64,000 nt of DNA, taken from assembly GCA_964019135.1 (NCBI GenBank), contig OZ025257.1, positions 12,675,971-12,739,970 on the forward strand, read 5' to 3'. The position numbers and the translations under genes are program-made. The notes under the pieces were generated by a model, which saw only the letters and a list, made by a program, of their open reading frames with translations, had not been told where the DNA came from and did no database searches. Of the stretch, positions 6,848 through 12,800 are shown in pieces. Position 1 is the stretch's first letter, and every line of letters starts with the position of its first letter. This DNA comes from Arenicola marina (taxonomy: Eukaryota; Annelida; Polychaeta; Arenicolidae).

Positions 6848-9800
6848 CTACGATACGTACTTTTGTCCCTTGACGGCAGTTTTCGATTTCTTTATCTTCT
6901 TCGGAAGGGTCACCACTACTTGAAGGAAGGCTGATTCCAAGGACTGGTCCATAAACGGTGGAGTAGTCACATCTTGCACCATAATAACATATTCTCCTGC
7001 AAAGAACAAAACACATTACACTATGTAGGTATATATCGATCACTTGGTATGTCCTTCTATCAAGTACAACTTATGTATCGAACTCTGCAGGTGCATGAAA
7101 GGCCTCCGCAGTCTACATAAAGTGCACATAGCGATTACTCAGATAGCGAGCGCAAGGTCTGTCGTCATGAAGCTATATGCACTATTGGGGTCAGATGAAG
7201 ATGGCACTATCGTACGGAATATTTATGCTAGGCGCAAAATTAATACGAAAAACGATTTTTGTTTGGTTTTCCTATCTAAGCCTTTCTATACTGACCTGGC
7301 CGTGCGTATCTTTCGTCGCCTTGGTTTTTGCTTGCCCTCGTCGAAGGTCTGCTCTCATCTGAACGGCAAAAGAGCAGGATGTTCGACACCGTCATCGCCA
7401 CTTACATATTGACACCGTCATCGTCTCTTACATATTGACATCGTCATCGTCTCTTACATAGAAACACCGTCATCGCCTTTTACATATTGACTCCGTCATC
7501 GCTTCTTACATATTGACAGTCCTCGTCTTACATATTGACACCGTCATCGTCTCTTACATATTGACTCCTTCATCGTCTCTCACATATTGACTCCATCATC
7601 GTCTTACATATTGGCACCGTCATCGTCTCTTACATATTGACAGTCCTCGTCTCTTACATATTGACACCATCATCGTCTTACATATTGGCACCGTCATCGT
7701 CTCTTACACATTGACACCGTCATCGTCTCTTACCTAGAAACACCGTCATCGCCTCTTACATATCGACAGTCCTCGTCTTACATATTGACACCGTCATCGT
7801 CTCTTACATATTGACACCGTCATCGCCTCTTACATAATGACACCATCATCGTCTCTTACATATTGACACCGCCATCGTCTCTTACATTTTAACACCGCCA
7901 TCGTCTCTCACATATTGACTCCTTCATCTTCTCTTACATATTGACATCGTCATCGCCTCTTACATATTGACAGTCCTCGTCTCTTACATATTGACACCGT
8001 CATCGTCTTACATATTGACACCGTCATCGTCTCTTACATATTGACACTGCCATCGTCTCTTACATTTTAACACCGCCATCGTCTCTGACATATTGACACC
8101 GTCATCGTCTTACATATTGACACCGTCATCGTCACTTACACATTGATACGGTCATCGTCTCTTACATATTGACACCGTCATCGTCACTTACATATTGACA
8201 CCGTCATCGTCTCTCACATATTGACACCGTCATCGTCTCTTACATATTGACACCGTCATCGTCTCTTACATATTGACACCGTCATCGTCTTACATATTGA
8301 CAGTCCTCGTCTGTTACATATTGACACCGTCATCGTCTTACATATTGACAGTCCTCGTCTCTTAAATATTGACACCGTCATCGCCTCTTACATATTGACA
8401 CCGTCATCGTCTCTTACATATTGACTCCTTCATCTTCTCTTACATATTGACATCGTCATCGCCTCTTACATATTGACAGTCCTCGTATCTTACATAATGA
8501 AACCATCATCGTCTTACATATTGACAGTCCTCGTCTCTTAAATATTGACACCGTCATCGCCTCTTACATATTGACACCGTCATCGTCTCTTACATATTGA
8601 CTCCTTCATCTTCTCTTACATATTGACATCGTCATCGCCTCTTACATATTGACAGTCCTCGTATCTTACATAATGAAACCATCATCGTCTCTTACATATT
8701 GACACCGCCATCGTCTCTTACATTTTAACACCGCCATCGTCTCTCACATATTGACACCGTCATCGTCTCTTACATATTGACACCGTCATCGTCTTACATA
8801 TTGACAGTCCTCGTCTGTTACATATTGACACCGTCATCGTCTTACATATTGACAGTCCTCGTCTCTTAAATATTGACACCGTCATCGCCTCTTACATATT
8901 GATGCCGTCATCGTCTCTTACATATTGGCACCGTCATCGTCTCTTTAGACTCTTACATAGAAACACCGTCATCGTCTCTTACATATTGACACCGTCATCG
9001 TCTCTTACATATTGACAGTCCTCGTATCTTACATAATGACACCATCATCGTCTCTCACATATTGACTCCCATCTTCTCTTACATATTGACACCATCATCG
9101 TCTTACATATTGGCACCGTCATCGTCTCTTACATATTGACACCGTCATCGTCTTACATATTGACAGTCCTCGTCTGTTACATATTGACACCGTCATCGCC
9201 TCTTACATATTGACACCGTCATCGTCACTTACATATTGGCACCGTCATCGTCTCTTACATATTGACACCGTCATCGTCTTACATATTGACAATCCTCGTC
9301 TCTTACATATTGACACCGTCATCGTCTTACATATTGACAGTCCTCGTCTCTTACATATTGACACCGTCATCGCCTCGTACATATTGACACCGTCATCGTC
9401 TCTTACATATTGGCACCGTCATCGTCTCATACATAGAAACACCGTCATCGTCTCTTACATATTGACACCGTCATCGTCTCTTAAATATTGACAGTCCTCG
9501 TCTCTTACATAATGACAACGTCATCGTCTCTTACATATTGACACCGTCATCGTCTCTTACATATTGACAGTCCTCGTATCTTACATAATGACACCATCAT
9601 CGTCTCTTACATATTGACACCGTCATCGTCTCTTACATATTGACACCGCCATCGTCTCTCACATATTGACACCGCCATCGTCTCTTACATAATGACACCG
9701 TCATCGTCTCTTACATATTGACACCGTCATCGTCTCTTACATATTGACACCGCCATCGTCTCTCACAGATTGACACCGTCATCGTCTCTCACATATTGAC

Positions 9801-12800
9801 ACCGTCATCGTCTCTTACATATTGACACCGTCATCGTCTCTTACATATTGACACCGTCATCGTCTCTTACATATTGACAGTCCTCGTCTCTTACATATTG
9901 ACACCGTCATCGTCTCTTACATATTGACACCGTCATCGTCTCTTACATATTGACACCGTCATCGTCTCTTACATATTGACAGTCCTCGTCTCTCACATAT
10001 TGACACCGTCATCGTCTTACATATTGACACCGTCATCGTCACTTACACATTGATACGGTCATCGTCTCTTGCATATTGACACCGCCATCGTCTCTCACAT
10101 ATTGACACCGTCATCGTCTTACATATTGACACCGCCATCGTCTCTTACATATTGACACCGTCATCGTCTCTTACATATTGACACCGTCATCGTCTCTTAC
10201 ATATTGACACCGTCATCGTCTCTCACATATTGACACCGTCATCGTCTTACATATTGACACCGTCATCGTCTTACATATTGACAATCCTCGTCTCTTACAT
10301 ATTGACACCGTCATCGTCTCTTACATATTGACACCGTCCTCGTCTCTCACATATTGACTCCATCATCGTGTTACATATTGACACCGCCATCGTCTCTTAC
10401 ATATTGACATCGTCATCGTCTCTTACATATTGACACCGTCATCGCCTTACATATTGACACCGCCATCGTCTCTTACATATTGACATCGTCATCGTCTCTC
10501 ACATATTGACACCGTCATCGTCTCTCACATATTGACACCGTCATCATCTTACATATTGACACCGCCATCGTCTCTTACATATTGACACCGTCATCGTCTC
10601 TTACATATTGACACCGTCATCGCCTTACATATTGACACCGCCATCGTCTCTTACATATTGACACCGTCATCGTCTCTTACATATTGACACCGTCATCGCC
10701 TTACATATTGACACCGCCATCGTCTCTTACATATTGACATCGTCATCGTCTCTCACATATTGACACCGTCATCGTCTCTTACATATTGACACCGTCATCG
10801 CCTTACATATTGACACCGCCATCGTCTCTTACATATTGACACCGTCATCGTCTCTTACATATTGACACCGTCATCGCCTTACATATTGACACCGCCATCG
10901 TCTCTTACATATTGACATCGTCATCGTCTCTCACATATTGACACCGTCATCGTCACTTACATATTGACACCGTCATCGTCTTACATATTGACACCGCCAT
11001 CGTCTCTTACATATTGACACCGTCATCGTCTCTTACATATTGACACCGTCATCGTCTTACATATTGACACCGCCATCGTCTCTTACATATTGACACCGTC
11101 ATCGTCTCTTACATATTGACACCGTCATCGTCTCTTACATATTGACACCGTCATCGTCTTACATATTGACAGTCCTCGTCTCTTACATATTGACACCGTC
11201 ATCGCCTCTTACATATTGACAGTCCTCGTCTGTTACATATTGACACCGTCATCGCCTCTTACATATTGACACCGTCATCGTCACTTACATATTGACACCG
11301 TCATCGTCACTTACATATTGACACCGTCATCGTCCCTTACATATTGACCCCGTCATCGTCTCTCACATATTGACACCGTCATCGTCACTTACATTTTGAC
11401 ACCGCCATCGTCTCTTACATATTGACACCGTCATCGTCTCTTACATATTGACACCGTCATCGCCTTACATATTGACACCGCCATCGTCTCTTACATATTG
11501 ACACCGTCATCGTCTCTTACATATTGACACCGTCATCGTCTTACATATTGACACCGCCATCGTCTCTTACATATTGACACCGTCATCGTCTCTTACATAT
11601 TGACACCGTCATCGTCTCTTACATATTGACACCGTCATCGTCTTACATATTGACACCGCCATCGTCTCTTACATATTGACACCGTCATCGTCTCTTACAT
11701 ATTGACACCGTCATCGTCTCTTACATATTGACACCGTCATCGTCTTACATATTGACAGTCCTCGTCTCTTACATATTGACACCGTCATCGTCTTACATAT
11801 TGACAGTCCTCGTCTCTTACATATTGACACCGTCATCGCCTCTTACATATTGACAGTTCTCGTCTGTTACATATTGACACCGTCATCGCCTCTTACATAT
11901 TGACACCGTCATCGTCACTTACATATTGACACCGTCATCGTCCCTTACATATTGACACCGTCATCGTCTCTTACATATTGACACCGTCATCGTCCCTTAC
12001 ATATTGACACCGTCATCGCCTCTTACATATTGACACCGTCATCGTCACTTACATATTGACACCGTCATCGTCCCTTACATATTGACCCCGTCATCGTCTC
12101 TCACATATTGACACCGTCATCGTCACTTACATATTGACACCGTCATCGTCACTTAAATATTGACACCGTCATCGTCTCTTACATATTGACATCGCCATCG
12201 TCTCTAACCTGTCGACCCCGGCTTGCCGGCGCGACCGCCGGTTCGGGACTTCTGACTCCGCATCGCCTGTCCCCGTTCCTCCTGAGAATCCATGACGGCG
12301 AATGGTCTGTACATAGGCGGCGCTGCGGGCAGGATGAGATCTTGGAAGGACGCCACGCCATTCTGGACCCGAACGTCCTCTGGAATCTTGGGGCCGCCTT
12401 CGTTGTCATTGTCAACCGCCGGGTTTTCACGTTCTATTGGCGGAAACTTTTCTGCATTATGTGAATGACCAAGATGCCGTTAAGTTAATTTTCACGGTAC
12501 AGCTAGTTATCATGAAGGTTGGTGGATCTAGAGCGTAACTGGTAGTATAGTTTTGTAAATAATATGTAATGCGCTTGCATGATTTTTCTGCGATATTGGC
12601 CAAGTGGCAAGACTGGCCAATGAATCATATATTAATGAATCACTTTTTTCACTCCTGGGCTAAGCTGGAACAAATATAAGCAGCGGAGTCACAATGCAAA
12701 TTTAATTTACGCAAGGTCAAATGATACGTCTCCCTCGATTGTCACAGCAGGAGGGGATCGCAATGGCCGCATTGTATATTATTAATACGCTAAAATCCTG

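What the first reader, a model, noticed from the sequence alone, without database searches (positions are those of the whole stretch)
6997..12208. Minisatellite that multiplies the MORN1 splice donor
The last MORN1 intron is a 4.8-kb array whose first unit contains the real 5' splice site (G/GTTAGAGACG). On the transcribed strand every standard unit repeats GTAAGAGACG, a better match to the U1 consensus than the true donor. The pre-mRNA would therefore carry some 150-190 strong decoy donors right behind a weaker real one. It seems the donor region itself was the seed of the expansion. This could act as a U1 sponge, create isoforms with extra repeat sequence in exon 10, or tune output of the C-terminal exon. 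Structure is seen; effects are inferred.
Basis: partly seen in the sequence, partly recalled or inferred. Interest (0 to 1): 0.78.

Follow-up and report, generated by a model that had tools for sequence, protein, structure and literature searches.

The report
Repeated splice-donor minisatellite in annelid MORN1
A 4.8-kb run of 190 short repeats, starting exactly at a splice donor, fills the last intron of a worm MORN1-like gene; the repeated donors are mostly weaker than the real one, and other genes of the same worm carry similar and stronger arrays, a little-known kind of repeat described before in amphioxus.

Summary
In detail: intron 12208-6997 (minus strand, 5,212 nt) carries a 190-unit minisatellite (12208-7380; 130 units of 26 nt, 56 of 24) whose first unit starts at the donor GT. 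The unit is unique to this locus in the 867-Mb genome (125 of 125 matches). 182 of 189 later units keep GT.

The interpretation mostly fails. The modal copy reads TAT|GTAAGA and lacks the G at -1 found in 20 of 20 donors derived from other genes. With own-genome matrices 0 or 1 of 182 copies outscores the real donor CAG|GTTAGA; in U1 stacking 13 of 182. Reading past the donor meets TAG at once, so no repeat-coded protein arises.

It is not isolated. Of 55 myosin and kinesin exons fetched for another purpose, 5 run into arrays that repeat exon tail plus donor (7-25 sites seen). An ALDH1L1-like intron has at least 91 listed AGGTRAG sites in 39-bp register, yet its first donor gives the conserved protein. 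These resemble amphioxus "mirages". Mitochondrial gene order indicates an annelid. Most likely this is a tolerated minisatellite seeded at a 5' splice site, with the first donor used. No RNA was available.

The parts
12209..12451 (-). Exon i of the MORN1-like gene (243 nt), upstream of the array
   Evidence: acceptor ..CATAATGCAG, donor CGACAG|GTTAGAGA; in frame with its neighbours
12183..12208 (-). First repeat unit; its first two bases are the GT of the real donor
   Evidence: GTTAGAGACGATGGCGATGTCAATAT, 3 mismatches to the consensus
7380..12208 (-). Minisatellite array, 190 units, sense-strand consensus GTAAGAGACGATGACGGTGTCAATAT
12204..12206 (-). TAG stop met at once by any transcript that reads past the real donor
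   Evidence: the open frame of exon i ends ..GKPGSTG and stops at 12204
12122..12130 (-). Nearest copy of the stronger type, TAT|GTAAGTGA (GT at 12130); others at 12052, 11922, 11314, 11288, 10960, 9232, 8191 and 7405
7725..7736 (-). The one copy with AG|GT, TAG|GTAAGA (GT at 7733); highest-scoring copy
6997..7379 (-). Non-repetitive 3' part of the intron, ending in TTTTGTTCTTTGCAG
6848..6996 (-). Exon j, last coding exon: [15 protein letters not shown].. to the stop
12844..17710 (-). Exons a-h: 17710-17639, 16421-16212, 15783-15693, 15438-15351, 15074-14867, 14005-13867, 13302-13163, 12966-12844
   Evidence: joined frame without stop, MORN repeats

Best explanation
The last intron of an annelid MORN1-like gene contains a minisatellite whose repeat begins at the 5' splice site: the first 26 bases of the intron, perhaps with a few exon bases, were duplicated in tandem and spread by slippage or unequal exchange to 190 units. 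It belongs to a class present elsewhere in this genome and known from amphioxus as mirages. The most upstream donor, which keeps CAG|G, is used; the copies leave with the intron and are tolerated. Shown: anatomy, uniqueness, weaker copies, similar arrays at other exon ends, the protein consequence of the ALDH1L1-like first donor. Inferred: origin at the donor, use of the first donor in MORN1, neutrality.
For: Array edge at the donor base and unit unique to the locus. Real donor beats most copies. 5 of 55 other exons run into arrays of exon tail plus donor: L027, L034, L047, L060, L066. On the donor side, array starts within 60 nt inward of the exon hit's end: 8 in 3.3 kb against 0.39 per kb further out, P 6e-5. 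In the ALDH1L1-like gene the exons joined at the first donor align without gap to ALDH1L1 (4gnz, E 2e-31) although at least 91 AGGTRAG sites in 39-bp register are listed from that donor on (my count). Donor windows are neither purged nor kept within units. The donor-proximal half of the MORN1 array is more uniform (0.948 against 0.917 identity; rho -0.27, P 2e-4).
Against: Exon-tail similarity in MORN1 is weak: 9 of 14 bases in register, best of 26 phases, 5 of 1,333 exon positions as good, but six lengths were tried uncorrected and the gapped test gave nothing (176 of 218 other 40-mers as good). Minisatellites are common in these introns anyway (coverage 0.33 at 1.2-1.4 kb from exons). Three of the 8 starts are not clean: L022 and L041 begin just past the donor and L044 is a doubtful exon with stops. 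Genome-wide counts of tandem donor words do not stand out (49,381 against 21,975, 39,773 and 46,747). No transcript, no second individual, no sister species.
Confidence: 0.7

Rival explanations
1. Ordinary intronic minisatellite: it arose anywhere in the intron and came to abut the donor by spread or by deletion of what lay between; the donor played no part.
For: Tandem arrays cover about a third of sequence 1.2-1.4 kb from exons; the copies do not keep AG|GT (1 of 189); exon-tail similarity weak; donor-word pattern counts inconclusive.
Against: The first 26 intron bases are themselves a unit starting at the GT; five other exons show arrays that repeat exon tail and donor together; array starts are dense at exon ends.
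Confidence: 0.2
2. One reading: the copies act as decoys that compete with the real donor, soak up U1 or lower output of the C-terminal exon.
For: 12 units read GTAAGT with U1 stacking equal to or slightly better than the real donor (13 of 182 copies stronger); three real donors of the gene also lack -1 G. A cryptic donor can provoke intron retention in another gene (PMC8706089, abstract).
Against: Most copies are weaker; ALDH1L1-like and motor genes carry intact consensus copies next to conserved coding frames; no sign that donor bases are purged inside units.
Confidence: 0.05
3. Helper: extra U1 sites downstream strengthen the first donor or protect the long intron from premature cleavage.
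For: U1 bound downstream of a 5' splice site can enhance exon definition (PMC5933811, abstract). U1 suppresses intronic polyadenylation (PMC3826338, listing only).
Against: Modal copies pair weakly with U1 (-4.3 against -7.1 kcal/mol for the real donor by duplexfold); donor windows are not better kept than the rest of the units once homopolymers are masked.
Confidence: 0.05

Closest known systems
Mirages: minisatellite-like tandem duplications of exon-intron boundaries in amphioxus (Adh3, globins, TnC, PGBD5)
   Same: Tandem units at a splice boundary, many with splice signals; regular splicing reported as undisturbed (PMC3087553 passages; PMC3902484 passage; the 2002 Adh paper PMC117041 is not held).
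   Different: Annelid rather than amphioxus; donor side only in the clear cases here; up to 190 units against 3-6 in globin Gb6; in MORN1 the exon part of the unit is not certain and AG before GT is lost.
Intronic minisatellites of the earthworm metallothionein gene
   Same: Annelid, intron 1 filled with minisatellite-length repeats (monomers 25-216 nt); duplicated exon 4 copies that do not appear in transcripts (PMC12783039 passages).
   Different: No statement seen that a unit contains a splice donor; passages only were read.
Intron gain by tandem duplication of AG/GT sites
   Same: Tandem copies bearing splice signals; discussed for mirages in PMC3087553.
   Different: Here no new intron is shown; the copies lie within one intron.

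Membership tests
Mirage (amphioxus-type exon-intron boundary minisatellite) | Minisatellite-like tandem array | tested here: met
   190 units
Mirage (amphioxus-type exon-intron boundary minisatellite) | Array reaches the splice junction | tested here: met
   unit begins at donor base 12208
Mirage (amphioxus-type exon-intron boundary minisatellite) | Unit contains exon sequence too | tested here: inconclusive
   MORN1: 9 of 14 bases in register, gapped test negative. Met in L027, L034, L047, L060, L066 and L082
Mirage (amphioxus-type exon-intron boundary minisatellite) | Many copies carry AG/GT | tested here: not met
   MORN1: GT in 182 of 189, but AG before GT in 1 of 189. The source says many but not all copies carry it, so this weakens rather than excludes
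Mirage (amphioxus-type exon-intron boundary minisatellite) | Regular splicing undisturbed | not testable with these tools
   no RNA data
Mirage (amphioxus-type exon-intron boundary minisatellite) | Length instability between haplotypes or somatic | not testable with these tools
   one assembly only
Strong decoy donors or U1 sponge | Copies pair with U1 better than the real donor | tested here: not met
   13 of 182 stronger by stacking, 0-1 of 182 by own-genome matrix
MORN1 gene | MORN repeats | tested here: met
   Pfam PF02493, 5 stretches, E 4.4e-29
MORN1 gene | Orthologous C-terminal region | not tested
   GEYV..DVTTPPF motif recalled from human MORN1; no orthologue was fetched

The most novel reading that the evidence does not exclude
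In this annelid the 5' splice junction is a birthplace of minisatellites: roughly one exon in ten among those sampled (5 of 55 motor-protein exons; in the 10 ALDH exon hits no array includes exon tail, though 3 start at or just past the donor) runs into an array that multiplies its own donor, up to at least 91 consensus copies, and the spliceosome still takes the first. That would be a genome-scale natural experiment on how the first of many identical donors is chosen, and would show donor-side bias in the mutation process (for instance through transcription or R-loops at the exon end), not only in what selection tolerates.
Probability: 0.3. Interest if true: 0.75.

Novelty: new member of a known kind. 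Interest (0 to 1): 0.5.

Why it matters
For MORN1 alone it is a curiosity. Taken with the other arrays it suggests that donor multiplication, known to me from amphioxus papers only, occurs in several genes of an annelid and can involve dozens of full-strength donors. Such loci let one test directly how the spliceosome chooses among identical 5' splice sites, and whether minisatellites start preferentially at splice junctions and feed intron gain.

Tried and rejected
Amphioxus as source: rejected, since mitochondrial order nad3-S1-nad2-cox1-N-cox2-D-(atp8)-Y-G-cox3-Q-nad6-cob-W-atp6-R-H-nad5 on one strand (tRNAs, Pfam on ten frames; nad6 below its cut-off, atp8 without a hit) is the order I recall for annelids such as Lumbricus. 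A search of solved structures with COX1 was not informative on taxon.

Selection on donor bases within units: a first look suggested that donor bases are better kept; with homopolymers masked and all windows ranked, the donor window is ordinary (substitution ranks 10 of 26, 9 of 42, 10 of 15, 33 of 70, 36 of 45, 30 of 45, 5 of 31, 17 of 41). Withdrawn.

Genome-wide excess of tandem donors: AGGTRAG x3 49,381 matches against 21,975 for the reversed word and 39,773 and 46,747 for a scramble and its reverse. By array in the listed parts of contig C1: 7 in 2.36 Mb against 21 in 14.33 Mb for two controls, P 0.09 (arrays counted by eye from capped lists). Inconclusive. Acceptor word TTYCAGG 6,047 against 4,419 reversed.

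Donor against acceptor side within 60 nt: 12 of 55 against 3 of 55 (P 0.024); with the ALDH exons 15 of 65 against 5 of 65 (P 0.027; one of the five has only 2.2 copies, below the filter of 3 used for the 55). Exon tail against exon head in the unit: 5 of 65 against 1 of 65, P 0.21. So the side bias is modest and may reflect selection.

In one search the U1 energies failed (all zero); one search replaced them. crashed; and one search were malformed.

Full report
What is there. The window lies at G000:C10:12675971-12739970 of an 867-Mb genome in 762 contigs. On the minus strand ten exons (17710 to 6848) join into one open frame with MORN repeats; the best PDB matches by sequence are MORN proteins such as 6t4d. 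A first exon further upstream was not established. The intron between exon i (12451-12209) and exon j (6996-6848) is 5,212 nt. Its first 4.83 kb is a minisatellite of 190 units: 130 of 26 nt, 56 of 24 nt, four others; 38 copies of the most common type. The first unit begins at the GT of the donor. The consensus with up to 3 mismatches occurs 125 times in the genome and 125 times in the window.

Are the copies strong donors? Of 189 later units 182 have GT and 172 GTRAG; the modal 9-mer TAT|GTAAGA occurs 127 times. The U1 5' end, read in 6 of 42 U1 loci of this genome, is AUACUUACCUG. To get donors of this genome without scoring donors I used myosin and kinesin exon pairs: of 33 pairs, 20 gave a single GT-AG solution, 3 were ambiguous and 10 gave none. 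All 20 have G at -1. The real donor CAG|GTTAGA scores 5.19 and the modal copy -1.52 with a matrix from these 20; 0 of 182 copies score higher. With 8 other MORN1 donors added, 1 of 182 scores higher. By U1 stacking 13 of 182 are stronger; by a recalled general matrix 14 of 182. Against my reading: 3 of those 8 MORN1 donors lack G at -1 (CTC, GTT, TTT before GTAAGT or GTGAGT), and 12 units read GTAAGT, so a minority of copies would be usable.

Protein consequence. Past the donor the frame reads GGT TAG, so any use of a copy ends the protein at the same residue without the C-terminal exon; copies from about 12130 on would put the stop more than 50 nt before the junction and invite decay (inference from the usual rule, untested in annelids).

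Not isolated. TRF on the 60 motor-gene loci, fetched for the donor matrix, found 151 array rows. I left out 5 loci on unplaced contigs with stops in frame. In the other 55, arrays cover 0.18-0.22 of the first 50 nt after the exon hit, against 0.02-0.04 before it, rising to 0.33 on both sides at 1.2-1.4 kb. Array starts within 60 nt inward of the hit end number 8, and 4 within 60 nt beyond, against 0.39 per kb further out (P 6e-5 for the 8). Five of the 8 clearly repeat coding exon tail plus donor: L027 (AAG|GTAGGC, 25 sites), L034 (CAG|GTACGT, 7), L047 (CAG|GTGGGT, 15), L060 (CAG|GTAGGG, 22), L066 (ACC|GTGAGT, 17), with intact 9-mers in 24 of 25, 6 of 7, 14 of 15, 16 of 22 and 16 of 17 (arrays cut by locus ends). 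L022 and L041 start just past the donor, L044 is doubtful. In a further sample of 10 of 13 ALDH exon hits, arrays start within 12 nt of the hit's end in 3 and include exon tail in none.

The strongest case was met through a pattern search, so it is not part of those counts: an ALDH1L1-like intron at C1:605784-612570 (6,787 nt) with a 39-bp unit bearing CAG|GTAAGT and about 17 exon bases. I read its two ends; from the list and I count at least 91 AGGTRAG sites in 39-bp register, the real donor included, with no listed site between about 608,977 and 610,825. By length about 168 units would fit if unbroken. Joining the exons at the first donor gives a gap-free match to ALDH1L1, so the first of these donors is the productive one in protein terms.

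Limits. Two genome-wide tests do not support more than this: tandem donor words are not clearly in excess, and donor windows within units evolve like the rest. The donor-acceptor contrast is modest and may come from selection alone, since a duplicated acceptor should be harder to tolerate. In MORN1 itself homology into the exon is weak.

Known or new. Amphioxus mirages are minisatellite-like duplications of intron-exon boundaries; Adh and globin data were said not to show disturbed splicing (PMC3087553, passages; PMC3902484, one passage). My searches for the like in annelids (besides 6 and 9) showed only the earthworm metallothionein paper as close (PMC12783039, passages). The held library lacks most subscription journals, so absence there is weak evidence. 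I therefore file the MORN1 array as a degenerate, donor-side relative of mirages, and the annelid set as the part worth following.

Noticed in passing
G000:C1:605784-612570 (L082, L097): ALDH1L1-like intron with a 39-bp array bearing CAG|GTAAGT; a better case than MORN1 for testing donor choice.
   Followed up: partly
L027, L034, L047, L060, L066: Myosin and kinesin exons that run into arrays repeating exon tail plus donor.
   Followed up: partly
unplaced contigs C390, C536, C504, C443, C465, C330, C652, C609, C497, C684, C232: Intron-poor kinesin or kinase matches with TAG/TAA but no TGA inside the frame: possibly contigs of a ciliate that reads TAA/TAG as an amino acid, living with the worm.
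   Followed up: no
G000:C3, about 14-57 Mb: More than half of 122 listed protein-kinase matches lie on C3, mostly open frames of about 280-310 aa with one uninterrupted match.
   Followed up: no
G000:C12:556678-593202: Tandem U1 snRNA genes, mostly 616 bp apart (41 of 42 matches).
   Followed up: no
window 48089-58075, minus strand: Retroelement reading frames; the 101-aa frames at 49286-49591 and 56612-56917 are identical and flank a 1,215-aa frame, as long terminal repeats would; reverse-transcriptase-like frames lie outside them (by eye).
   Followed up: no
window 39173-39390: 42-bp tandem repeat, 5.2 copies, open on the minus strand.
   Followed up: no
window 16916-16996: Second 26-bp tandem repeat within the same gene, 3.2 copies, in the intron between exons a and b, away from splice sites.
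   Followed up: no
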